From the NCBI RefSeq assembly GCF_002102355.1, contig NZ_LQPT01000081.1:186001-250000 (forward strand): a DNA stretch of 64,000 nucleotides. Direction: 5' to 3'. Every line of letters starts with the position of its first letter. Position 1 is the stretch's first letter. The stretch comes from Mycobacterium sherrisii. GTDB lineage: Bacteria; Actinomycetota; Actinomycetes; Mycobacteriales; Mycobacteriaceae. This document shows positions 1 through 47,508 of the stretch, piece after piece. Under the pieces are notes generated by a model. The model did no database searches. It was not told where the DNA came from and was given only the letters and a program-made list of their open reading frames with translations. Position numbers and translations under genes: made by a program.

Positions 1-3867
<3,867 letters not shown>

Positions 3868-36569: not shown

Positions 36570-38423
36570 CTAGTCCCGCAACCCAAGCAGATCGATGACG
36601 CTTTGCGCCAGTTCCTCGAGCGGGCGGTCCGGGACGAGTCGCAGATCGGGGTTTTTCGGACGCTGGTAGGGGCTGTCGACACCGGTGAAATGCGTGATTT
36701 CACCGGCGCGAGCTTTGGCGTACAAACCCTTGGGATCACGCGCCTCGCACTCGGCCAGGGGGGTATCGCAGAAGACTTCGAAAAACTCAAATCCGGCGTC
36801 GGCGTGGACTTTACGAGCCATCTCGCGGTGGTCGGCCAGCGGGCTGATGGCGGGCACCAGCACGGTCTGACCGGAATCCGCCAGCAAGGTCGCGACATGG
36901 GCCAGCCGGCGCAGGTTCTCGGCCCGGTCGGCCATGGAAAAGCCGAGGTCCGCGTTCAAGCCGTGCCGCAGGTTGTCGCCGTCGAGAACGTAAGCGGGAA
37001 CCCCCTTTTCGAGCAACTTCTGTTCGACCAGCATGGCCACCGACGACTTGCCAGCTCCCGACAGTCCGGTCAGCCACACCGTCCGTCCGCGAGACGCCCG
37101 GTCTTTGGCGGTGACCAGCGACTGGTGCCGCACGGTGTTCGGGCTCGCCTTCTGTGCCGTCACATCGCGCAACACCATGCCGGCCGCGACGGTGCCGTTG
37201 GTGTGCGGGTCGATCAGGATGAACGAGCCGGTGCTGGCATTACGGGTGTACTCGTCGAGCAGCAACGGCACCTGGGTGCGCAGCGAGATGCGGCCAAGTT
37301 CGTTGAGCTTCAACGCCGTAGCGGTCTTGTCCCGGTGCAGGGTGTTGACGTCGAGCCGGTAATCCAGCGCGGTGACCCGGGCGCGGGTGGTTCGGGTGGT
37401 GTGTTTGATGACGTAGTCGCGCCCCGGCTCCAACGACGCCGCGTCGGCCATCCAACACACCGTCGCGTCGAATTCTTGGGTGACCCGGGGCTGGTTGTTG
37501 GTGCGGGCGATCATGTCGCCGCGGGAGATGTCGATGTCGTCGGCCAGGCTGATCGAGACGGCCATCGGTGGAAATGCCTCATCCACAGGGCCATTCGGGC
37601 CCTCGATCGCGGTGATCCTGCTGGTCTTGCCGACCGGCAGCACCACCACCTCGTCGCCCGGACGCATCACGCCGCTGGCCACCGTTCCGGCGTAGCTGCG
37701 GTGGTCGTGATGTTGGTGAGTCTGCGGCCGGATGACGTACTGCACCGGGAAGCGCACATCGACGAGGTTGCGGTCACCGGCGATGTACACCTCTTCGAGA
37801 TGCGACAGCAAAGCCGGGCCTTCGTACCAGGGTGCCCGCCCCGATTTGGTCACCACGTTGTCGCCGTGCAGTGCGGAAAGCGGGATGGTCGCCACGTCCT
37901 GCACGTCCAAACGTGCTGCGAAGGCGTGGAATTCGTCCTTGATCGCCTCGAATTTCGCCCGATCCCAGTCGATCAAATCCATCTTGTTGACGGCCAGCAC
38001 GATGTGCTGGATGCCCAGCAACGAGGCCAAGAACGCGTGCCGACGGGACTGCTCGAGCAGGCCCTGCCGGGCGTCGACGAGCACGATCACCAGTTGCGCG
38101 GTCGAGGCCCCCGTCACCATGTTCCGGGTGTACTGAATGTGCCCCGGGGTGTCGGCGATGATGAACTTCCGCCTGGGCGTGGCGAAGTAGCGGTAGGCCA
38201 CGTCGATGGTGATGCCCTGCTCACGCTCGGCGCGCAGGCCGTCGGTGACCAGTGCCAGGTCGGTGTAGTCGTGGCCGCGTTCTTTGGACGTCTTCTCCAC
38301 CGCGGCCCACTGGTCTTCCATCACGGCCTTGGAGTCGTAGAGCAGCCGGCCGATCAGTGTGGACTTGCCGTCGTCGACCGAGCCGGCGGTCGCGATGCGT
38401 AGCAGTGTCGTCGGTGCAGCCAT
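36570..38423 (-). CDS. cysN: Bifunctional ATP sulfurylase GTPase subunit / APS kinase CysNC
   Basis: 617 aa. Residues about 1-430 are an EF-Tu-like GTPase (GSVDDGKSTLIGRLL, DTPGHIQYTRNM, NKMDL) that drives CysD. Residues about 440-617 are APS kinase (WLTGLSGAGKSSVAMLVE, DGDNLRHGL, FCDTPLAECEARDPKGLY). The complex makes APS and then PAPS from sulfate, for cysteine synthesis and for sulfated metabolites. ATG at 38423 overlaps the cysD stop by one base (TGATG), giving tight coupling. The longer open frame upstream lies within cysD. Confidence 0.96.
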   Translation of the reverse strand: MAAPTTLLRIATAGSVDDGKSTLIGRLLYDSKAVMEDQWAAVEKTSKERGHDYTDLALVTDGLRAEREQGITIDVAYRYFATPRRKFIIADTPGHIQYTRNMVTGASTAQLVIVLVDARQGLLEQSRRHAFLASLLGIQHIVLAVNKMDLIDWDRAKFEAIKDEFHAFAARLDVQDVATIPLSALHGDNVVTKSGRAPWYEGPALLSHLEEVYIAGDRNLVDVRFPVQYVIRPQTHQHHDHRSYAGTVASGVMRPGDEVVVLPVGKTSRITAIEGPNGPVDEAFPPMAVSISLADDIDISRGDMIARTNNQPRVTQEFDATVCWMADAASLEPGRDYVIKHTTRTTRARVTALDYRLDVNTLHRDKTATALKLNELGRISLRTQVPLLLDEYTRNASTGSFILIDPHTNGTVAAGMVLRDVTAQKASPNTVRHQSLVTAKDRASRGRTVWLTGLSGAGKSSVAMLVEQKLLEKGVPAYVLDGDNLRHGLNADLGFSMADRAENLRRLAHVATLLADSGQTVLVPAISPLADHREMARKVHADAGFEFFEVFCDTPLAECEARDPKGLYAKARAGEITHFTGVDSPYQRPKNPDLRLVPDRPLEELAQSVIDLLGLRD

Positions 38424-39352
38424 CAGAAGTAACCCTGCCGTTTCCGGTCTTCCATGCCAGCTTCGGAGATGCGGTCGTCGGCCCGGGTGGCGCCGCGTTC
38501 GGTCAGCCGGGACACCGCGGTTTCGGCGATCACCTCCGAGACCGTGGCGGCCTTGGATTCGACACACCCGGTGCAGGTGACGTCGCCGACCGTGCGGAAC
38601 CGCACCGTCTTTTCCAGCACCCGCTCGTCCGCCCGCGGCTGCATGTGCCGATGCACGGCCAGCAGCATCCCGTCGCGCTCGAACACCTTGCGCCGGTGGG
38701 CGTAGTAGATCGACGGCAACTTGATCTTCTCGGCGCCGATGTAGGACCAGATGTCGAATTCGGTCCAGTTCGACAGCGGGAAGACGCGGATGTGCTCACC
38801 CTTGTGGTGGCGGCCGTTGTAGAGGTTCCATAGCTCGGGCCGCTGGGCCTTGGGGTCCCACTGCCCGAACTCGTCGCGGAAGCTGAACACTCGCTCCTTG
38901 GCGCGTGCCTTCTCCTCGTCGCGGCGCGCGCCACCGAACGCGGCGTCGAACTTGTTCTCCCGAATGGCGCGCAGCAGCGTCACCGTCTGGATCGGGTTGC
39001 GCGACGGGATGGTTTCGACGACCCGGCCCGCATCGATGTCTTCCTGCACCGATGCCACCACCAGGCGCACCCCGAATTCCTCGACGAGTTCGTCGCGGGT
39101 CGCGATCACCTCGTCGAAGTTGTGACCGGTGTCGACGTGCATGACCGGAAATGGCAGCCGTCCGGGACGGAACGCCTTGAGCGCCAGATAGAGCATCACG
39201 ATGGAGTCCTTGCCACCGGAAAACAGCAGCACCGGCCGCTCGAACTCCGCGGCGACCTCCCGAATGATGTGGATGGCCTCGGCCTCCAGCGAGCGCAGAT
39301 GGCTCAACTCGTATTGGCCGGCCGAAGGACCCGCCGCTACCCCACTAGTCAT
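38423..39352 (-). CDS. cysD: Sulfate adenylyltransferase small subunit
   Basis: 309-aa PP-loop ATPase (LLFSGGKDSIVMLYLALK) that adenylates sulfate with ATP, coupled to GTP hydrolysis by CysN. Other conserved blocks: HVDTGHNFDEVI, GGARRDEEKARAKERVFSFRD, and FPLSNWTEFDIWSYI. First gene of cysD-cysNC. A ribosome site AAAGGA ends 6 nt before the ATG and is overlapped by a 14-bp palindrome. In M. tuberculosis the neighbouring Rv1284 beta-carbonic anhydrase follows; it is absent here. Confidence 0.97.
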   Translation of the reverse strand: MTSGVAAGPSAGQYELSHLRSLEAEAIHIIREVAAEFERPVLLFSGGKDSIVMLYLALKAFRPGRLPFPVMHVDTGHNFDEVIATRDELVEEFGVRLVVASVQEDIDAGRVVETIPSRNPIQTVTLLRAIRENKFDAAFGGARRDEEKARAKERVFSFRDEFGQWDPKAQRPELWNLYNGRHHKGEHIRVFPLSNWTEFDIWSYIGAEKIKLPSIYYAHRRKVFERDGMLLAVHRHMQPRADERVLEKTVRFRTVGDVTCTGCVESKAATVSEVIAETAVSRLTERGATRADDRISEAGMEDRKRQGYF

Positions 39353-39360
39353 GGCATCCT

Positions 39361-39374
39361 TTTATCCGGATAAA
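39361..39374. promoter_or_regulatory. Perfect 14-bp palindrome in the cysD leader, candidate Rrf2 operator
   Basis: TTTATCCGGATAAA is a perfect inverted repeat ending 8 nt before the cysD start codon and partly covering its ribosome site. AT-rich flanks around a CCGG centre resemble sites of Rrf2-family dimers. The adjacent Rrf2 gene is the obvious candidate regulator. Binding is inferred. Confidence 0.5.
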
Positions 39375-39385
39375 CTTGGTAGAAC

Positions 39386-39403
39386 TGACCATGTTTACGG
39401 TCA
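39386..39403. promoter_or_regulatory. Second inverted repeat between cysD and the thioesterase gene
   Basis: TGACC-ATGTTTAC-GGTCA, 5-bp arms around an 8-nt AT-rich spacer, 12 nt from the cysD palindrome in the divergent region. It could be part of a promoter or an operator for either gene. Purely a sequence observation. Confidence 0.3.
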
Positions 39404-39534
39404 TTGGCGTTTATAGAACCAGCCCGTCGCGGCGGTGTCAATGGGCAACCAGCGGCGGCCACGCACCGGACAAATCGCACCCGTGGCCGCGTGGGCGCTT
39501 CCCCAGCCGAGCATCGGTGCGCGAGCATGGGCGG

Positions 39535-39960
39535 ATGGCCACCTCCTCGGCGCCCGCGAGCGGGCGTGACGTCATCGCGCAATTTCTCCCACAATCGCCG
39601 TTCGTCGCCAAGTTGGGCATCATCGCCGATCAGCTCGGCGACGACGAAGTCCGGCTCCGGCTGCCGTGGGATCCGTCCAACGTCACCGTCGGCGACATGG
39701 TGCACGGCGGTGCCATCGCCACGCTTGCCGACCTCACCGTCATGGCCGCCGCCTGGTGCGGCAGAGAAGCACCACCGGAATTCCGCGGCGTCACGGTGTC
39801 GATGGCGCTGGACTTCCTGGCCCCGGCTCGGGCCACCGATGCGATCGGGGTGGGCCGGGTGCTTCGACGGGGCCGCTCACTGACCAACTGTGAGGCCGAG
39901 ATCGTCGACCCGGAGGGCAGGCTGATCGCCAAGGCCCTGGCGACCTACAAGGTCGGCTAG
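39535..39960 (+). CDS. PaaI-like hotdog-fold thioesterase
   Basis: 141-aa acyl-CoA thioesterase-type protein. Hotdog motif VTVGDMVHGGAIATLADLTVMAA contains the usual His-Gly-Gly and Asp; the C-terminal strands are AIGVGRVLRRGRSLTNCEAEI. Likely hydrolyses an acyl- or aryl-CoA; substrate unknown. The ATG at 39535 opens the family N-terminus, whereas the frame upstream to 39376 runs through the cysD control region. The TAG stop shares CTAG with the convergent hycE stop. Confidence 0.85.
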   Translation: MATSSAPASGRDVIAQFLPQSPFVAKLGIIADQLGDDEVRLRLPWDPSNVTVGDMVHGGAIATLADLTVMAAAWCGREAPPEFRGVTVSMALDFLAPARATDAIGVGRVLRRGRSLTNCEAEIVDPEGRLIAKALATYKVG

Positions 39961-41435
39961 AGGTCGTTACCCGCGTACGACTGGTTGAAGCTTTTGTTGG
40001 CCAACGGGAAGTCGGGAACGATGGTGTCGGCCATGGCCACCGGCAGCGCCGGCCAGTTGAACCAGGATGGGTCGACAATCTTGGCACGGGTGATGTGAGT
40101 GGTTGCGTCTGTTTCGACGCGGTGCACGATGGTGCCGCGCCATCCTTCGACAATGCCGACGCCGCTGCTGGGTGCGGCGCCTTGTTGGTCCGCGCTCGGC
40201 TGGTATGCGATTGGGCCGCTCTGTGCTTCGACAAGGTGCTGCAGCAGCAGGGCGGATGCGGCGAATTCGTCGCGGCGCACGGTGTAGCGGGCCAGGACGT
40301 CACCGGCGGTGGCGACGACTTCGGTGATGGGCAGCTCGACGGTCGGGTGCTCGACCCGGGCGTCGGTGCGCAGGCCGCTGGCGCGGGCGACATACCCCAG
40401 ACAGCCCAGCGCGGCGGCGTCTTCGGTGGGCAGCACGGCGGTGCCGGCGAACCGGTCGTAGGCGATGCCGTTGCCCAGCGTCAACGACGCCACCTCGGCC
40501 ACGTCGACCGCGAGCCGTTGAATTTCCCCGGTGTCGGGAAGGCCTTGCAGCACAACGCCGCCCGGACGGATGGCGCCGCGTAGCAACCGGTGGCCGGTGA
40601 CGGTGGCGTTGAGCCGCAGCAACCGTTCGCGGATGCGTTGGGCGTGTGCGTTGGCGATCCCATAGCCGATGTCGTTGGCCAGAGCACCGAGATCGGCAAC
40701 GTGGTTGTAGAGCCGCTCGAGCTCGACGAGCATGGCGCGCAGCCGGTGCGCCTCGTCGGGCAGCTCGATACCCAGCGCGTCCTCGACGGCGAGGCTGTGG
40801 GCCAGGGCATGCGCGGCCGACGTATCGCCGCTGATCCGTTCGGCGAGATCGACCGCCCGCAGGGCGGAGCAGCCCTGGAACAGCTTCTCGATGCCGCGGT
40901 GGACGAACCACAACCGGGCCTTGAGCCGCACCACGGTCTCGCCCGCCACGGAAAACCGGAAATGGCCGGGTTCGATGAGGCCGGCGTGCACGGGGCCGAC
41001 CGGGATCTCGTAGACACCGGGTCCTTCGACGTTGACGAACGGGAACGCGCCGGCGGTAGCGAAATCGGGTGCCGGCCCGGCGTCGGCGCGCATGGGATGC
41101 CAGTCGGGCCAGTGCGCGTGGCGGACCAGGCGACGCGGCTTGGGGTGACCGACGGGGCGGATCCCGTACAGGTCCGCCATCTCGCGCTCGAACCGGCTCG
41201 CCGGAAACGATACCGAGGCCAACGACCGGATGCTTGGATTATCAATCGGCACAATGCACTCCAGCTCGACGCGACGGTCGGGCCGGCCGGACAGAAAGAG
41301 ATAGACCACGCGCAGACTGTCCATGTCGTCGTGCGCGGCGACCAGCGCCAGTCGAAACGAATCGTCCAGCAGTTGTTCGGCCATCCCCATGAGATCGTGC
41401 TGGGAAACCCTGTGCCGCAACCAGTTCCGGTTCAC
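39957..41435 (-). CDS. hycE: HycE/NuoCD-like large subunit without Ni-Fe ligands
   Basis: 492 aa. Residues about 1-120 are NuoC-like (FEREMADLYGIRPVGHPKPRR) and the rest NuoD/[NiFe]-hydrogenase-like. The ligand motif RxCGxC near the N-terminus of the domain is replaced by Arg200-Ile-Ser202-Gly-Asp-Thr205. The C-terminal DPCxxC is replaced by Asn484-Gln-Ser486-Tyr-Ala-Gly489, three residues before the end. All four Ni-Fe ligands are therefore absent, and the protein cannot bind the [NiFe] centre in the known way. Equivalent to Rv0087. GTG start at 41435 shares GTGA with the hycQ stop. Distal gene of a six-subunit complex. Confidence 0.9.
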   Translation of the reverse strand: MNRNWLRHRVSQHDLMGMAEQLLDDSFRLALVAAHDDMDSLRVVYLFLSGRPDRRVELECIVPIDNPSIRSLASVSFPASRFEREMADLYGIRPVGHPKPRRLVRHAHWPDWHPMRADAGPAPDFATAGAFPFVNVEGPGVYEIPVGPVHAGLIEPGHFRFSVAGETVVRLKARLWFVHRGIEKLFQGCSALRAVDLAERISGDTSAAHALAHSLAVEDALGIELPDEAHRLRAMLVELERLYNHVADLGALANDIGYGIANAHAQRIRERLLRLNATVTGHRLLRGAIRPGGVVLQGLPDTGEIQRLAVDVAEVASLTLGNGIAYDRFAGTAVLPTEDAAALGCLGYVARASGLRTDARVEHPTVELPITEVVATAGDVLARYTVRRDEFAASALLLQHLVEAQSGPIAYQPSADQQGAAPSSGVGIVEGWRGTIVHRVETDATTHITRAKIVDPSWFNWPALPVAMADTIVPDFPLANKSFNQSYAGNDL

Positions 41436-42901
41436 CGGGCGGCTCCGACGGTATCGGCGGCGACGGTGAACAGGTGGGTGAGCGGGCCGGCCGTCACGCC
41501 GAGGCCGGTACTGACGGCGATGCCGAGGATCAGCACCGTTGCCGCCGTCACCGGCACCGCAAGCGTGGGCGCACCCGCGGCGGGCGTGCCGAGCAGGACT
41601 CGCCCCGAGTTGCGGGCCAGCGCGGCGAAGGCGATCGCGATCAGCAGCATCGCCACGCCCAGCACCCAGGCCAGCCGGGCACCGGCCAGCGACCGCGCAA
41701 TCGCCAGCTCGCTGGCGAACATCGCGAACGGCGGCAAGCCCAGCAGCACGATCAGTCCAGTGCCGAACGACAGGCCGACCAGCCGCGACCGGCGCATGAC
41801 GCCGGTGATATCGGCGATCGCGGTGGAGTCGTGCGCGGCCTGCAACTGGCCGCCCGCCAGGAACAACACGGTCTTGGCGACCCCGTGGGCGAGCACATGC
41901 AGCAGCAGCGCGGAGATCGCCAACGTGGTCCCGGCGGCGGCAGCGATTGCGATCAGCCCCATGTTTTCCATCGACGAGTACGCCAGCATCCGCTTGATGT
42001 CGGCGGTGACGGTCAGCATCAGGGCAGCGACCAGCAGCGTGGCCAGCCCGACCACCAGCAGGCCGCCGCGCAGGAAGGCGGGTCCGGTGGCAGCGTCGAT
42101 GATCGTCCGCAACCGGATGAGCACCGAGAACGCGACCGACAGCAGCACCCCGCTCATCAGTGCGGACACCGGCGCGGGGGCTTGGCTGTGCGCGTCGGCC
42201 AGCCAGGTGTGGAACGGGAAGAGCCCGGCCTTGGCGCCGTAGCCGATCAGCAACAGTCCCCCGGCCAGCCGCGCGACCGCGGGATTCAGGCCGCGGGCAT
42301 GCGCGGCAAGGACGTCAAGGTTCAACGCGTGCGCGGCGGGCGCCCCCGCGTAGCGGGCGGCGAAGTAGAGCAGCACGGTGCCCAGGAATGCGACGGAGAT
42401 ACCGACCGAGCAGATCACGACGTACTTCCAGGTGGCTTCCAACGCGGTGCGGGTGCGGCGATGCCCCACCAGGAAGGCGGTGATCACGGTGGTGGCCTCG
42501 ATCGCCACCCACACCACGCCAATGTTGTTGGCGCACACCGCCAGAACCATTGCCGCGAGGAACGCCGGCGTCAGGACCCCATACAGCCGGGCACCAGGTT
42601 GATCGACGTGGCCGCGGGCGAGCTCGTGGTCGATGTAGGAAATGCTGGCAAAGGTGGCCAAGGTGCCGACGGTCCCGATGACGATCAGCATCGTCACCGT
42701 CAGCGCGTCGACACGCAGCAGCCCGCCGAGGCTGAACCGGGCACCGGACCCGACGCCGAACCCCAGCGCCGCGCCGCACCCGAGCACGGTGACCGCGGAC
42801 AGCACGGTCAGCGCCGCAGTCGCGTGGCGCCAGCCGCCGGCCAGGGCGGCGAGCGACGCGACGAGGGGCGCCAGGATGGCGGTGAGCAGCAACGCGGTCA
42901 T
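41432..42901 (-). CDS. hycQ: HyfF/NuoN-like proton-pumping membrane subunit
   Basis: 489-aa antiporter-like subunit with about 13-14 membrane helices, equivalent to Rv0086. Proton-path residues are kept: Glu in VWVAIEATTVITAFLVG, Lys in GYGAKAGLFPFHTWL, Lys in DIKRMLAYSSMENMGL, and Lys in LAHGVAKTVLFLAGG. ATG at 42901 overlaps the upstream stop by one base (TGATG). The frame continues open to 43336 only as an Arg-rich shadow inside hycP. Probably translocates protons in concert with the NuoB/NuoD-like peripheral arm. Confidence 0.9.
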   Translation of the reverse strand: MTALLLTAILAPLVASLAALAGGWRHATAALTVLSAVTVLGCGAALGFGVGSGARFSLGGLLRVDALTVTMLIVIGTVGTLATFASISYIDHELARGHVDQPGARLYGVLTPAFLAAMVLAVCANNIGVVWVAIEATTVITAFLVGHRRTRTALEATWKYVVICSVGISVAFLGTVLLYFAARYAGAPAAHALNLDVLAAHARGLNPAVARLAGGLLLIGYGAKAGLFPFHTWLADAHSQAPAPVSALMSGVLLSVAFSVLIRLRTIIDAATGPAFLRGGLLVVGLATLLVAALMLTVTADIKRMLAYSSMENMGLIAIAAAAGTTLAISALLLHVLAHGVAKTVLFLAGGQLQAAHDSTAIADITGVMRRSRLVGLSFGTGLIVLLGLPPFAMFASELAIARSLAGARLAWVLGVAMLLIAIAFAALARNSGRVLLGTPAAGAPTLAVPVTAATVLILGIAVSTGLGVTAGPLTHLFTVAADTVGAAR

Positions 42902-43563
42902 CAGTCGCGCAGCTCCTGCAGCTTGTCCAGGTCTGCATCGCCGAAAGTGTGACGCAGCCGCCCGGTCAGCACGCCGATCACGATGACGGCGAAGAGCACA
43001 TCGAGTGAGGCTCCGAGTTCGACAATCAACGGCACCCCCGCCGTGAGTAGGAACGCGGTCGCGGCAATCCCGTTGTCCAGCATCAAAAATCCGACCGCCT
43101 GCGAGACGGCATGCAGCCGCGTGGTCAACACGAAAAGCGCAATCAGCACCACCGCGAACGCGGCGGGCACGGCATTGGTGCTGGGACCCGGTTGCAGGTC
43201 CACCAACGGCGCGGTGATCGCGAACGCGGCGACGGTCAAGCCGCCGGTGAGCAGCAGCGAGCTCGTGGTGTTGATCAGCGGCGTGGCCTCGCGGCGCGCG
43301 GCGACTTCGGCACCGACCACGCGGCCGAGCAGCCACGGCAACACCCCCGCCCGCAGCACCAGCACGGCGACGGCCACTCCGATGAGTGCGAGATCGTGGT
43401 CGTGGATGCCGCGCAGCGCCGGGATGGCGGTCAGTGCCAGGCCCTGCCAGGCCAGCAGATGCACGATGGCGGACAGGTCGCGGCGCCAGACGATCAGAAC
43501 AGCGGCCAGCACCAGCCCGCCCGCGGCAAAGTCGACCAGGGTGGAAAAGTTGGTGTCGGTCAT
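42901..43563 (-). CDS. hycP: HyfE/NuoK-like membrane subunit
   Basis: 220 aa with about six membrane helices, equivalent to Rv0085. HyfE-type proteins are NuoK-like in their middle part ([45 protein letters not shown] here) and lie between HyfD- and HyfF-type subunits in E. coli hydrogenase 4. The conserved Glu in VELGASLD fits the buried NuoK carboxylate. Begins ATG 43563, 10 nt after hycD ends, the only non-overlapping junction in the operon. Confidence 0.85.
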
Positions 43564-43573
43564 CGCTGGGGCC

Positions 43574-44533
43574 TCACGTGCGGACGGTGAAGAAGTTGGC
43601 GGCGGTGACGGCGAGCAATGCCAGCAGGAATGAACCCGCCAACAGCTCGGGCACCCGGAACAGGCGAAGCTTGGCGACGAAGACCTCGAATGTCGCGAGC
43701 AGCGCGGCCAACACCGCCACCTTGATTACTATCGCCGCCACGCCCGTGACCACCTGCAGCGCCGTCGGCGTGGCGCCGGCAATCCCCCACGGCAGGAACA
43801 GGTTTGCCAATAACGCCAGCAACACCGTCAGCCGCATCCCGGACGCCCATTCGACCAGCGCCAACCGAGGACCGGCGTACTCGAGAACCATCGCCTCGTG
43901 CACCATGGTCAGTTCCAGATGCGTTGCCGGGTTGTCGACCGGCAGCCGTCCCGTCTCGGCGACGATGACGATCACCAGCGCGACGAAGGCGAGCACCGCG
44001 GTCAAGGACAGGACGTGATCGGGGTGGGTGACCGTACTTGTCACCAGGGCACCCAGATTGGACGATCCGGCCGGAATGGACAGCGCGAACACCGCCAGCA
44101 GAATCGTCGGCTCGACCAGCGCGGCGATGGTGATTTCGCGGCTTGCGCCCATACCACCGAACGAGGTCCCCGTGTCGATGCCGGCCAGGGTAAGCGCGAC
44201 GGTGCCCAGGAAAAGCAGGCCGACCACGGCGAACAGGTCGGCGCTGAAATCCAGGGGCGACCCGGTCGCGACAATCGGCGCGATCGCCGCGATCAGCAGG
44301 GCGGTGCCGGCGACGACCGCGGGCGCGGCGGCGAACACGATTGTCGTACCGATTGGCCTGACGTGTTGCTTACCAAGCTGTTTGATCAGATCGCGGCACG
44401 GCTGCAGCAATCCGCCGCCCGCGCGGCCCTCCCAGTGGGCGCGCACTTGACGCGTCACACCGACCACCAGCGGCGCGCCGGCCATCACCACGCCGAGCTG
44501 AGCCGCCCCGGCGACGTAGGACATCGCGTTCAC
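43574..44533 (-). CDS. hycD: HycD/NuoH-like membrane anchor subunit
   Basis: 319 aa with about eight membrane helices, equivalent to Rv0084. NuoH-type acidic motif [19 protein letters not shown] continues with [18 protein letters not shown], the glutamates that link the quinone/Fe-S site to the proton channel. [15 protein letters not shown] is also conserved. The GTG at 44533 gives a GTGA overlap with the upstream gene, like the other junctions. ATG 44524 ([10 protein letters not shown], 316 aa) is equally possible. The open frame up to 45394 is a shadow. Confidence 0.9.
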
Positions 44534-46509
44534 TTGGCCGCCACCAACACGATCAGCACGCCCAGCGCACCGTAGGCCAAGTACAGGTGCACGCTTCCGG
44601 TGTGGGCCCGCCGCATCAGGCCGGCCACGGCGCCGACGGCGGCGACCACCGGGGTGTACAAACGCTGTTCGATCGCGTCGGTGATCGCGGTCCGGTAGGC
44701 GATCCTGTCGACCATGTACCGTGACTCGGCCGTCGGGGTGACTTCGATATCGGTGTCGGGGCGCAGCACGTCGGCGAAAACTCGCTGCAACGGCTCGGCG
44801 AAGGACGTGGCCGTGTATTGCATGCGCTCGGTGAGATCGTCTGCGCCACAAGCCCATAACGGCCGCACGACCGGTGCCGGTCGGCGCCGCGAACGCAGCC
44901 GGGCCAACCCGGACGCCAACAGCGCGGCGCCGACCACGCCCGCGACGATCACGCCGGGCGCGATCGAGCCGGGCAGGCCGGGTAGTCGCACCACGGTGCC
45001 GAAGTCGGTGAACCCGACGGCCTTTCCGAACGGCAAGGTTGCGACGGTCGTCCGCACCACCGGAGCGAGGACGCCCGGCGCCACCGCGAGTATCAGGCAG
45101 GCGCCCGCCGCGGCCGCCATGCCGGCACGCATGCTGATCGGCGCCTCGGCCGCGGCGGCGGCCTGGCTGGAGCGGGGGCGGGCCAAGAATCCGATTCCGA
45201 ATGCTTTTGCCATGGCGGCGACGCTCAAGCCGGTGGCGAGTGCGACCACGCCGACCGCCAATGGTGTCGTCAAAGCCACCATCGGGTCGTGTGCGGGCGG
45301 GGCGTGAACCAGGGACTGCACCAGTAGCCACTCGCCGACGAAGCCGGCGCCGAGCGGCAGCCCGCACGCACCCAGCGCAGCCACCCCGAAGCACACGGTC
45401 GTGCTCGGCATCCGGCGGACCAGTCCGCCAAGCAGGTCGAGGTCTCGCAGGTGTGTCGCGGCCAGCACCGATCCGGCCGCGAGGAATCCCAGGCTCTTGA
45501 ACGCCGCGTGCGCCATCAGATGCACCACCGCGGCGGCCGCGGCGATGGTCGCCGGACCGTAGTCACCGCTGTCCGCGAAAAGCGTTGCGGCACCAAGTGC
45601 CAACGTCACCAGGCCCATGTTCTCCGTCGTCGAATACGCCAGCAGCCGTTTGATGTCGGTGGCCACCGAGGCCTGCAGCACCCCGTAGAGCGCGGAGATC
45701 CCGCCGACGGCCATCAGCGCTAGCCCCCACCAGCGCGGGCCCGGTCCGAGCAAGCGCAGGTCGAAGCGCACGATGCCGTAGATCCCCAGGTTGACCATCG
45801 CCGCACTCATCAGTGCCGACACCGGGCTGGGCGCTTCGGGATGGGCCCGTGGCAGCCAGGCATGCAGCGGCACCAAGCCCGCCTTGGACCCGAAGCCGAC
45901 GAACGTCAGCACGAACACGGCGGCGCGGACCCCGCCGGATGCCCCGGTGAGTTGGGTGAGCCGGTCGGATCCGCCGGACGCCGCGAGCACGATCAGCCCG
46001 ACCAGAATGGCGACGAACCCGAGCTGAGTCATCACCGCGTAGGACAGACCAGCCGAACGGACCTGTGCGCGGGTGTATTCGGACAGCACCAGGATCAGCG
46101 ACGTGATCGCCATCAACTCCCACGCCACCAGAAAGGTCGGTACCGATCCCGCGGCCGGCACCAGCTCCATCGCGGCGACGAACACCGGCAGCACCGCGAG
46201 CGTGACCCCGCCCAGCTGCTCACGTCTGGCGTACCCGATCAGGTAGCAGCCCACCGGTACGGCGACCGCGCCCGTCAGCGCGAGAAAGAAACCGCCCAGT
46301 GGGTCGAGTTCGATCCGCACCCCGGACAGCGGCAGCAGCCAGTCGAGTTGTACCGGGCGTAGCAAGCCGAACATGGCCTGCAGGCCCAGCCACAGCCCGA
46401 CCAGGCCCACCGCCGACGTCGCCAGCCCGCCGGCGGGCGCACCGAAACCCAGGCGTGGCAACATGTTTGGCGTCGAGGCGGGAACGACGGTCGGTGTGGT
46501 AATCGTCAC
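44530..46509 (-). CDS. HyfB/NuoL-like proton-pumping membrane subunit
   Basis: 659 aa with about 15-16 membrane helices, equivalent to Rv0083. Proton-antiporter domain with Glu in LVAWELMAITSLILV, Lys in GFGSKAGLVPLHAWLPRAHPE, Lys in DIKRLLAYSTTENMGLV and Lys in HAAFKSLGFLAAGSV. Between the last helices is a hydrophilic region (about 545-625, CGADDLTERMQYTATSFAEPL) seen in HyfB/HycC proteins. GTG start at 46509 overlaps the small-subunit stop (GTGA). With hycQ it gives the complex two antiporter-like subunits. Confidence 0.9.
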   Translation of the reverse strand: MTITTPTVVPASTPNMLPRLGFGAPAGGLATSAVGLVGLWLGLQAMFGLLRPVQLDWLLPLSGVRIELDPLGGFFLALTGAVAVPVGCYLIGYARREQLGGVTLAVLPVFVAAMELVPAAGSVPTFLVAWELMAITSLILVLSEYTRAQVRSAGLSYAVMTQLGFVAILVGLIVLAASGGSDRLTQLTGASGGVRAAVFVLTFVGFGSKAGLVPLHAWLPRAHPEAPSPVSALMSAAMVNLGIYGIVRFDLRLLGPGPRWWGLALMAVGGISALYGVLQASVATDIKRLLAYSTTENMGLVTLALGAATLFADSGDYGPATIAAAAAVVHLMAHAAFKSLGFLAAGSVLAATHLRDLDLLGGLVRRMPSTTVCFGVAALGACGLPLGAGFVGEWLLVQSLVHAPPAHDPMVALTTPLAVGVVALATGLSVAAMAKAFGIGFLARPRSSQAAAAAEAPISMRAGMAAAAGACLILAVAPGVLAPVVRTTVATLPFGKAVGFTDFGTVVRLPGLPGSIAPGVIVAGVVGAALLASGLARLRSRRRPAPVVRPLWACGADDLTERMQYTATSFAEPLQRVFADVLRPDTDIEVTPTAESRYMVDRIAYRTAITDAIEQRLYTPVVAAVGAVAGLMRRAHTGSVHLYLAYGALGVLIVLVAAK

Positions 46510-46985
46510 TTCCCGGTCACCGATCGCAGGGCCGCCACGATTTCGGCGGGGGTGGGCGGGCAGCCCGCAATCTCGACGTCGACGGGCACCACCTCGCCCA
46601 CCGAACCGGCGACGGCGTACGCATCCTTGAACACCCCTCGGTTCAAGGCGCAATCGCCGCACGCGATCACCACCCGTGGGTGTGGCGTCGCCGCAAGGGT
46701 GTTGCGCAGCGGCTCGGCCATGTTGCGCGTGACCACCCCGGTCACCAGCAGCGCATCGGCGTGGCGGGGCGAGGCCACCAGCCGGGCCCCGAATCGTTCC
46801 GCGTCGTACACCGGGCCGAACGCGCCCGAAACCTCCACCTCACACCCATTGCACGACCCCGCGTCCACGTGCCGGATCTGCAATGAACCTTTCACTCCCG
46901 CAGGCGGTTCGGTTGCCGATGGCGGTGCCGCCGGCGCGGGTTCCACGATCCGGCCGACACGACGGATTTTGGCGAGCCAACCCAT
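46506..46985 (-). CDS. NuoB/HycG-like Fe-S small subunit
   Basis: 159 aa, equivalent to Rv0082. Carries the N2-type [4Fe-4S] ligands: Cys45 and Cys48 (GSCNGCE), Cys112 (GDCA; Cys109 lies just before it) and Cys142 (AGCPPTP). The spacing is as in NuoB and HycG. The peripheral arm can therefore still pass electrons, although the large subunit lacks its Ni-Fe site. A Pro/Ala-rich linker (residues 15-30) follows a short basic N-terminus that may contact the membrane. ATG at 46985, 4 nt after the regulator. Confidence 0.92.
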   Translation of the reverse strand: MGWLAKIRRVGRIVEPAPAAPPSATEPPAGVKGSLQIRHVDAGSCNGCEVEVSGAFGPVYDAERFGARLVASPRHADALLVTGVVTRNMAEPLRNTLAATPHPRVVIACGDCALNRGVFKDAYAVAGSVGEVVPVDVEIAGCPPTPAEIVAALRSVTGK

Positions 46986-46989
46986 GGCG

Positions 46990-47334
46990 CTAATGGGCCG
47001 CGGGGCCGGTGCGCAAATCCTCGAGCACCGCGATCCGATCGGTAAGCACCCGCGCCAGTACCTGGCGAGCCACCGCGAGCAACTCGGCGATATCGGGTGA
47101 GGCGATCGAGTAGGTCACGACATTGCCGTCGCGGTCCGCGACGACGACTCCCGCGCGCCGCAACACCGCCAGCTGTTGGGATAGATTCGATGCCTCGAGT
47201 CCGACATCGGACACCAACAACTCGCCGACCGAGCGGTCCCGCTCCACCAGCAGCTCGAGAATCCTGATGCGCGCCGGGTGCCCGAGGGTCTTGAAGAAGT
47301 CGGCTTTGAGCTTGTAAAGGGGCTTCGATTCCAG
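46990..47334 (-). CDS. ArsR family regulator, Rv0081-like
   Basis: Winged-helix repressor preceding the complex genes, about 114 aa from CTG 47334 or 121 aa from TTG 47355. Core: PLYKLKADFFKTLGHPARIRILELL, DVGLEASNLSQQLAVLRRAG, and the wing DRDGNVVTYSI. No ArsR-type metal-binding cysteines are present. In M. tuberculosis the orthologue is a hypoxia-responsive hub regulator. A ribosome site AGGAG (47344-47340) sits 5 nt before CTG 47334, whose product LESKPLYKLKA aligns with the M. tuberculosis start. TTG 47355 has no visible ribosome site. The start codon is therefore probably CTG. Confidence 0.88.
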   Translation of the reverse strand: MESKPLYKLKADFFKTLGHPARIRILELLVERDRSVGELLVSDVGLEASNLSQQLAVLRRAGVVVADRDGNVVTYSIASPDIAELLAVARQVLARVLTDRIAVLEDLRTGPAAH

Positions 47335-47363
47335 CGTCGCTCCTGAAGACTTCAATACTTGTG

Positions 47364-47377
47364 CAATTGATCAGTTG
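47364..47377. promoter_or_regulatory. Candidate ArsR-type operator upstream of the hyc-like operon
   Basis: CAATTGATCAGTTG is a near-perfect 14-bp palindrome (12 of 14 bases symmetric) centred on TGATCA, about 30 nt upstream of the regulator's probable start and between it and divergent oppB. Position and symmetry suit autoregulation by the ArsR protein. Not verified. Confidence 0.45.
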
Positions 47378-47508
47378 AAGAACTCATCATACGGCCTGGC
47401 CGTTGGCGGTGTGGCCCGGGGCCGACGCGACCGGGGCACCGCGATCCCAGCCGGCCCGCGCCGGTCTCGCTAACCTGTCCCAATGCGATGCAGGCAGGCC
47501 GCCCGGGC

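What the first reader, a model, noticed from the sequence alone, without database searches (positions are those of the whole stretch)
39957..46985. Complete complex-I/hydrogenase-like membrane complex whose Ni-Fe site has been lost
The six genes encode NuoB-, NuoL/HyfB-, NuoH-, NuoK/HyfE-, NuoN/HyfF- and NuoCD-like subunits in an overlapping operon. Seen directly: the small subunit keeps all four N2-cluster cysteines, the membrane subunits keep the lysines and glutamates of proton transfer, but the NuoD-like subunit has Ser202/Thr205 and Ser486/Gly489 where hydrogenases need four Cys. No HycB/HycF-type ferredoxin subunits, formate dehydrogenase or hyp maturation genes lie next to it. By established knowledge, such a protein cannot carry [NiFe]; complex I itself shows that this fold can use quinone instead. 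I infer a proton-coupled redox complex with an unknown electron donor, not a formate hydrogenlyase as the annotation inherited from M. tuberculosis would say.
Basis: partly seen in the sequence, partly recalled or inferred. Interest (0 to 1): 0.85.

Follow-up and report, generated by a model that had tools for sequence, protein, structure and literature searches.

The report
Complex-I relative without hydrogenase metal site
A mycobacterial gene set of a kind usually labelled as a hydrogen-making enzyme is really an 'Ehr' complex, a cousin of the respiratory pump complex I that has lost its nickel-iron site and most of its electron wiring but kept a highly conserved pocket and proton path, so what this widespread machine does is an open and now testable question.

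Summary
Observation confirmed. Window 39957-46985 (-) holds six intact hydrogenase-4-like genes behind an ArsR gene (46990-47355). The large subunit has S202/T205 and S486/G489 where [NiFe] hydrogenases have four Cys. It is an Ehr complex (energy-converting hydrogenase-related), a known class of unknown function; tuberculosis papers call the corresponding locus formate hydrogenlyase. The site is rebuilt, not decayed: in 98 aligned rows D204 and G489 are invariant, S202 94, S486 96; dN/dS 0.10-0.27. Complex-I-type quinone use is not supported: catalytic Tyr and His positions are Gly and Ile, the canopy Asp is Asn, the cluster ligands are hydrogenase-type CxxC. New here: (1) a HycF-type ferredoxin subunit was found at 3 of 106 loci; in Nitrospirota and proteobacterial loci its membrane-anchor helix survives as the small subunit's N-terminus, leaving one [4Fe-4S] cluster; (2) two separate lineages lost ligands of that cluster too (three of four, or one), yet keep pocket and proton-path residues under purifying selection. 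Best reading: ion-translocating complex worked by an unknown ligand or substrate in the rebuilt cavity; in mycobacteria one cluster can still take electrons. Boldest reading: Ehr is a non-redox complex-I relative. Locus: new member of a known kind.

The parts
46990..47355 (-). ArsR/SmtB-type regulator (121 aa, no Cys), first gene of the unit
   Evidence: PF01022 E 1e-8, NCBIfam HTH_metalloreg over cut-off; recurs upstream of the unit at most actinobacterial loci
47350..47391 (-). putative ArsR operator overlapping the assumed TTG start: TGATGAGTTCTTCAA (TGATAAATTCTTCAA-like in relatives) and an imperfect CTTCAA...TTGAAG repeat
   Evidence: sequence; similar stretch at 13 of 17 other mycobacterial loci printed, not at the 3 non-mycobacterial ones; judged by eye, no statistic; no DosR-type box with up to 3 mismatches in the window
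46506..46985 (-). EhrS, small subunit (HycG/NuoB-like, 159 aa): one [4Fe-4S] site C45-x2-C48, C112, C142; Ehr-typical D111; N-terminal HycF-like anchor segment (by way of intermediates)
44530..46509 (-). HyfB/NuoL-like antiporter subunit; E131, K209, H216, K287, H334, K338, E393, K435 conserved
43574..44530 (-). HyfC/NuoH-like membrane anchor and E-channel subunit
42901..43563 (-). HyfE-like (NuoK/J) membrane subunit; E182 and D188 conserved
   Evidence: (NF008556 E 3.5e-17)
41432..42901 (-). HyfF/NuoN-like antiporter subunit; E135, K159, K224, K303, H339, K343 conserved
39957..41435 (-). EhrL, large subunit (NuoC+NuoD fusion, HycE-like, 492 aa) with S202-G-D-T205 and NKSFNQS486-YA-G489-NDL at the former Ni-Fe site

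Best explanation
The locus encodes an Ehr complex: a complex-I-superfamily membrane machine that cannot bind Ni-Fe or handle H2. SHOWN from sequence: the hydrogenase site was replaced by a nearly invariant polar pocket (S202-G-D204-T205...H209, N480-K481, N484, S486-Y-x-G-x-D491); Glu155, the canopy Arg433, the E-channel Glu and the antiporter Lys/Glu/His of the membrane arm are kept, while the canopy Asp has become Asn; the ferredoxin-type relay subunit HycF is absent; one cluster site with four Cys remains in the mycobacterial version. INFERRED: binding or conversion of a small, non-H2 ligand in the pocket drives, or is driven by, H+ (or Na+) movement through the membrane arm. In mycobacteria a soluble one-electron donor (ferredoxin is the natural candidate) can dock where HycF used to sit and reduce the single cluster, so that the cluster either feeds the pocket or gates the pump by redox state. 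ArsR control (in M. tuberculosis within the hypoxia response, from papers) fits a use when O2 is short.
Against: No substrate, donor or partner is identified; no gene outside the unit is constantly linked. The canopy Asp, protonatable in complex I and hydrogenases, is Asn here, so coupling may differ. Some lineages lack cluster ligands, which argues against electron input as the core step. For the window's own EhrS the HycF-like N-terminus is weak by itself (p 0.04-0.37) and rests on intermediate sequences. In Geobacter all Ehr subunits were more abundant on formate and were linked there to hydrogen formation (PMC7894505, passages); whether that is the same subtype was not tested. The chain was modelled alone; residues 139-179 and the last ten have low confidence.
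Confidence: 0.5

Rival explanations
1. Non-redox machine: Ehr is an ion pump or antiporter of complex-I shape whose pocket binds or hydrates/hydrolyses a ligand; the remaining cluster is structural or regulatory.
For: EhrS lost cluster ligands in two separate clades. Clade 1, CPR-type plus actinobacterial family f41: L121, L129, L139, L182, L183 have T or D, C, D, D for C45, C48, C112, C142. Clade 2, Microbacteriaceae: L104 has A, C, A, S; Cryobacterium L098 and L101 only C142S (tree, clades at SH-aLRT 100 and 99). All eight keep the EhrL pocket (L104 with T202 and only up to its contig end) and the listed membrane K/E/H of the B, F and C subunits (C subunit of L139 not scored); EhrS dN/dS 0.075 (L098/L101) and 0.19 (L182/L183).
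Against: All mycobacterial rows seen and 67 of 73 rows in all keep four ligands; the CPR type also changes E182 of the E subunit to Q in 5 of 5, so function may have shifted there; clade 1 and L104 rest on MAGs or unnamed draft genomes; D112/D142 could bind another metal.
Confidence: 0.3
2. Ferredoxin:menaquinone oxidoreductase working like complex I without NuoEFG.
For: Fold shared with NuoD; canopy Arg shared; mycobacteria use menaquinone (recalled).
Against: Catalytic Tyr is Gly203 (98/98), the His is Ile154 (98/98), the canopy Asp is Asn484 (92/98), cluster ligands CxxC not CC. PMC9474812 (passages) says non-protonatable replacements of canopy Arg or Asp impair complex I, and names tandem Cys and the redox-Bohr His as typical of complex I N2.
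Confidence: 0.12
3. Sulfane/polysulfide reductase like MBS of Pyrococcus.
For: Another Ni-Fe-less member of the superfamily; cysD-cysNC lie near the locus here.
Against: MBS keeps two large-subunit Cys and has a three-Cys cluster with a shortened loop (PMC7684303, passages); here none of the four Cys is left and the cluster has four ligands in CxxC spacing. The cysDNC neighbourhood was seen only in G031 among the loci, and a 4HBT gene lies between.
Confidence: 0.05
4. Genuine formate hydrogenlyase or [NiFe] hydrogenase, as annotated in M. tuberculosis.
For: Subunit set and names (He 2011 title, PMC6901956); the genome can mature [NiFe] enzymes.
Against: No Cys at any of the four positions in 98 rows; no HycB, HycF, HycI or Hyp match at the locus; 12 of 20 Ehr+ genomes of the genus lack a TIGR01701 protein at E up to 1e-100.
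Confidence: 0.01

Closest known systems
Ehr complexes (energy-converting hydrogenase-related) reported in Nitrospira, CPR bacteria, Sulfobacillus, Margulisbacteria and kin, ammonia-oxidising archaea, Geobacter
   Same: Hydrogenase-4 style subunits, both Cys motifs lost, function unknown; Nitrospira and CPR loci fall in one tree with the window (moderate support 81-95 at the deep forks)
   Different: Actinobacterial unit begins with ArsR and EhrS, order I-B-C-E-F-L; Nitrospira-type order B-C-E-F-L-I; CPR type lacks cluster ligands too. The published sequences themselves, Geobacter's included, were not compared
M. tuberculosis hyc locus Rv0081-Rv0087 ('predicted formate hydrogenlyase')
   Same: Regulator followed by two oxidoreductases, HycD, HycP, HycQ, HycE, as listed in PMC6901956, which fits the order here
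   Different: Here between a 4HBT thioesterase gene and oppB; the M. tuberculosis proteins themselves were not aligned here
E. coli formate hydrogenlyase / hydrogenase 4 (HycE, HyfG)
   Same: Closest solved fold and sequence; same kinds of membrane subunits
   Different: Four Ni-Fe Cys, HycF and HycB relays, C-terminal extension and HycI protease, none found here
Respiratory complex I (NuoBCDHKLN)
   Same: Fold, canopy Arg, E-channel and antiporter residues
   Different: No tandem cluster Cys, no quinone Tyr/His, canopy Asp is Asn, no NADH module at the locus
MBS (membrane-bound sulfane reductase, 6u8y)
   Same: Ni-Fe-less relative of membrane hydrogenases
   Different: MBS keeps two Cys and has three clusters, one with three ligands; its membrane arm is largely rotated by 180 degrees (PMC7684303, PMC9474812, passages)

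Membership tests
Ehr complex | group-4-hydrogenase/complex-I subunit set with antiporter-like subunits | tested here: met
Ehr complex | large subunit lacks both CxxC motifs (as stated in PMC10284858, PMC4378227) | tested here: met
Ehr complex | clusters with loci of taxa in which Ehr is reported (Nitrospira, CPR) | tested here: met
   trees (quick method, deep forks of moderate support); the published Ehr sequences themselves were not fetched
Group 4 [NiFe] hydrogenase | four Cys ligands of Ni-Fe | tested here: not met
   S202, T205, S486, G489
Group 4 [NiFe] hydrogenase | C-terminal extension removed by a protease (not universal in group 4, recalled) | tested here: not met
   protein ends at ...YAGNDL; no HycI match at 106 loci
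Formate hydrogenlyase | HycB/HycF relay and FdhF | tested here: not met
   none at the locus; a FdhF-like gene lies on another contig and such genes do not track the locus
Complex I | tandem Cys ligands of N2 | tested here: not met
   C45-x-x-C48
Complex I | quinone-binding Tyr and His of the 49-kDa subunit (residue roles recalled) | tested here: not met
   aligned positions are Gly203 and Ile154
MBS sulfane reductase | two retained large-subunit Cys and a three-Cys proximal cluster | tested here: not met
   against PMC7684303
Mrp-type antiporter | ion antiport activity | not testable with these tools
   only residues were examined

The most novel reading that the evidence does not exclude
Ehr complexes are not oxidoreductases at heart: they are complex-I-shaped, ligand- or reaction-driven ion translocators that descend from a hydrogenase by stepwise loss of cofactors. 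Ni-Fe ligands and the HycF ferredoxin domain went early, and in at least two lineages (CPR plus an actinobacterial family; Microbacteriaceae) ligands of the last cluster followed, while the rebuilt pocket and proton path stayed under purifying selection. The mycobacterial 'formate hydrogenlyase' would then be such a pump with a leftover cluster used as a redox gate.
Probability: 0.25. Interest if true: 0.85.

Novelty: new member of a known kind. Interest (0 to 1): 0.5.

Why it matters
The corresponding locus is written of in tuberculosis papers up to 2024 as a formate hydrogenlyase or hydrogenase, with H2 physiology inferred from it; for the mycobacterial loci read here the sequence speaks against that. 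More widely, a machine found in actinobacteria, nitrifiers, methanotroph-type bacteria, CPR bacteria and archaea keeps a nearly invariant pocket of unknown purpose. Members without cluster ligands make the open question of what Ehr does directly testable: if they still move ions, complex-I-type pumping can be driven without electron transfer.

Tried and rejected
Electron donor by gene neighbourhood: no constant neighbour among 98 loci. Recurrent minority neighbours by clustering: PEP carboxykinase at 5 loci (2 checked by Pfam), a CBS-domain protein at 6 (1 checked), a SulP transporter at 3 methanotroph-type loci (1 checked). cysDNC next door was tested as a sulfur link and rejected: it was seen only in G031 among the loci, and at 8 of 23 relatives' cysD loci oppB lies near cysD with no EhrL within 1.5 kb, i.e. 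the unit is an insertion here. F420H2-dehydrogenase input module PF04432: 1 of 100 relatives, none in the genus. FdhD (PF02634) is nearly universal, 56 of 61, so uninformative. DosR box: none; promoter/terminator scan no better than shuffles. The 118-aa minus ORF at 39349-39705, first taken for the next gene, was dropped: codon composition and Pfam point to a 4HBT thioesterase on the plus strand at 39391-39957. A first all-against-all ORF comparison timed out and was redone with fewer ORFs. Marreiros 2013 and He 2011 are not held, so I cannot say whether they already describe the mycobacterial locus as Ehr; the papers listed or read after my searches (listings and passages) did not show it, nor an Ehr without cluster.

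Rows left out: EhrL of L104, L118, L124 (truncated or short) from the 98-row count; L035 (interrupted gene), L046 (apparently the contig of L074), L058, L059 (partial) from that alignment; some unnamed and named loci may be the same species. EhrS rows under 75% length or with stops were left out of the 73. The 80 named loci are the best 80 of 578 confirmed from a capped list, so counts lean to near relatives. Of the 92 genomes with an EhrS-like match only the 30 fetched loci were read. In one search ten EhrS N-termini were tested: against E. coli HycF, 0-1 of 2000 shuffles reached the score for L117, L125, L126, L130, L141, L148; p was 0.03-0.11 for L115, L052, the window and L038. The HycG control was p 0.40 or more for nine rows but 0.0065 for L126.
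Full report

The former Ni-Fe site. S202, T205, S486 and G489 stand where HycE has C241, C244, C531 and C534. In 98 family rows (the window, 21 unnamed-genome loci and 76 of 80 named loci; the four-Cys L144 set apart, three short rows dropped) G203, D204, N480, K481, Y487, G489 and D491 are 98/98, S486 96, S202 94, H209 94, N484 92, T205 T in 73 and S in 21. D204 is Ile in HycE and HyfG and Leu in NuoD; N480-K481 are absent from all three. The protein stops where mature hydrogenases stop. Glu155 (91/98; proton-transfer role recalled) and Arg433 (98/98; HycE Arg478, the canopy arginine of PMC9474812, passages read) are kept. The canopy aspartate of that paper, HycE Asp529, aligns with Asn484 (92/98) and is thus replaced. 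dN/dS of the seven genes against five relatives is 0.10-0.27. This is a rebuilt pocket under selection, not a decaying hydrogenase.

Not complex I either. In the alignment the complex I Tyr that holds the quinone falls on Gly203 and the His on Ile154, both 98/98 (the roles of Tyr and His are recalled). The small subunit has C45-x-x-C48, C112 and C142, the spacing that PMC7684303 describes for MBH and cytosolic hydrogenases, not the tandem Cys of complex I nor the shortened loop of MBS (passages read). MBS also keeps two large-subunit Cys; none is kept here.

Loss of wiring. Searching 106 loci with E. coli HycF, HyfH, HycB, HycI and HypA-E found HycF-like matches at three only (L142, L143, L144) and none of the others (some contigs end inside the cluster). 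The same queries do find HycF and HycI at true hydrogenase loci. L144, a Bacillota MAG and the only one of the 77 named rows aligned with all four Ni-Fe Cys, has HycF and HycG in one open frame. In Nitrospira, other Nitrospirota, Methylobacter and Burkholderiaceae loci the small subunit begins with MFRILKKSLKTGVVT-like sequence that matches the N-terminus of HycF: for six such rows 0-1 of 2000 shuffles reach the score against E. coli HycF. The HycG N-terminus as control was unremarkable for five of the six and p 0.0065 for L126. [quoted passage not shown] In the window's EhrS (WLAKIRRVGRIVEP) the match is weak alone (p 0.04-0.37) and rests on intermediates such as L052 and L126. Reading: the ferredoxin domain was lost and the anchor kept, leaving one cluster site in the complex.

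Relatives without cluster ligands. Among the 80 named loci and the 30 loci fetched from a search of 396 Actinomycetota genomes, EhrS lacks ligands in L121, L129, L139 (CPR-type MAGs) and in L157/L182 and L158/L183 (one actinobacterial family, unnamed) with T or D, C, D, D at positions 45, 48, 112, 142; in Microbacteriaceae L104 (A, C, A, S); and in part in Cryobacterium L098 and L101 (C142S only). On the EhrL tree these are two separate places (CPR-type clade of nine rows, five of them with EhrS in hand, SH-aLRT 100; Microbacteriaceae, 99), three changes in all (quick tree, no bootstrap). All eight keep the EhrL pocket (L104 has Thr202 and is read only to its contig end; S instead of T at 205 in four) and every Glu/Lys/His listed for the B, F and C subunits, the C subunit of L139 not scored; the five CPR-type loci change E182 of the E subunit to Gln, three also D188 to Asn. 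EhrS dN/dS is 0.075 between the two Cryobacterium and 0.19 between L182 and L183; for L182 against L121 dS is saturated. So the pocket and the proton path outlast the electron supply. Against a general conclusion: all mycobacterial rows seen keep all four Cys, and the E182 change may mark a shift of function.

Distribution and mobility. EhrL at E below 1e-100 was found in 19 of 59 other genomes of the genus and 6 of 40 of the order; two of the 19 are split over contigs and one (G031, the nearest) is interrupted by a stop and a frame change in the B subunit. The seven-gene order is the same at most loci, but the surroundings differ; cysDNC adjacency was seen only in G031. At 8 of 23 relatives' cysD loci oppB lies near cysD with no EhrL within 1.5 kb. 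PMC3087520 (passages) had already put the M. tuberculosis hyc locus down as horizontally acquired and transferred several times in actinobacteria, next to pckA in Nocardioides; PEP carboxykinase lies beside the unit at 5 loci here.

Formate. In the genus 8 of 20 Ehr+ genomes (window's included) and 27 of 40 Ehr- genomes have a TIGR01701 protein at E up to 1e-100, so no positive link; some genomes are incomplete and other formate dehydrogenase families were not searched. Against this, PMC7894505 (passages) reports all Ehr subunits of Geobacter sulfurreducens more abundant on formate.

Regulation. The ArsR protein has no Cys. A TGATAAATTCTTCAA-like stretch lies upstream of arsR at 13 of 17 other mycobacterial loci printed, by eye. 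In M. tuberculosis, Rv0081 is a negative autoregulator in the hypoxia response and Rv0082-Rv0087 are under it (PMC5484546, PMC6901956, passages).

Known or new. Ehr complexes, lacking the Cys motifs and of unknown function, are in print for Sulfobacillus (PMC4378227), Margulisbacteria and relatives (PMC6349859), CPR (PMC7304191), comammox Nitrospira (PMC10284858), ammonia-oxidising archaea (PMC10432482) and Geobacter (PMC7894505); passages read in each. The mycobacterial locus is in print as hyc, 'predicted formate hydrogenlyase' (He 2011, title only) or 'putative [NiFe]-hydrogenase' (PMC6901956), still 'purported' in 2024 (PMC11361433). So the locus is a new member of a known kind. The anchor helix in EhrS, the pocket signature and the cluster losses I did not find in print (searches; listings and passages), with the limit that subscription papers are not held.

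Mechanism. I commit to an ion-translocating Ehr complex worked by an unidentified small ligand or substrate in the rebuilt pocket, with a soluble one-electron donor able to reach the single cluster in mycobacteria (0.5). The non-redox reading is next (0.3), quinone 0.12, polysulfide 0.05, hydrogenase 0.01.

Noticed in passing
L060:5989-13411 and L061:6433-13849 (genomes G046 and G022, same genus): A second, distant Ehr-like complex in mycobacteria with other gene order and motifs ERVEGISS...H and SFGLCYAG (one Cys of four); G022 carries both types.
   Followed up: partly
L159 (=L187), L164, L166, L169, L171, L172; also L177, L181: An actinobacterial sister clade of Ehr with Cys at the Ni-Fe positions (CAAC or CGAC type, LCYAC or LCYSC); L181 has CGAD, of L177 only the C-terminal pair was read. 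H209 is mostly Asn. L187 also has an ArsR gene and gave no match to E. coli HyfH. Possibly an undescribed hydrogenase.
   Followed up: partly
L188 and L189 (L175, L176, L178, L180): A further Ehr-like group with SGTDSFAQ and HSFAMSQAACD or QSFALSQGGCD, and a small subunit that has PGSPP where read and a shifted third Cys.
   Followed up: no
L035 (genome G031): The nearest relative at the same chromosomal site has an in-frame stop in ehrL and a frame change in the HyfB-like gene: the unit looks to be decaying there. Described only.
   Followed up: no
L082:11544-11792, L085:11527-11742, L107:11503-11772: Conserved 72-90 aa protein just downstream of ehrL in Pseudonocardiales and Rhodococcus (the L082 one has no Pfam match), near malic-enzyme-like or CBS-domain genes and, at L082 and L085, PEP carboxykinase.
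   Followed up: partly
L145, L147, L148: SulP-family transporter gene directly upstream of the Ehr cluster in methanotroph-type gammaproteobacteria (Pfam checked for L147).
   Followed up: no
window 36570-39352: CysD and a CysN-CysC fusion on the minus strand; a second CysD-like gene (65%) lies on contig C51.
   Followed up: no
window 1-3863: rRNA operon part on the minus strand (16S at 2345-3863, 23S 1-2060 cut by the window end), which explains the low G+C of the first 4 kb.
   Followed up: yes
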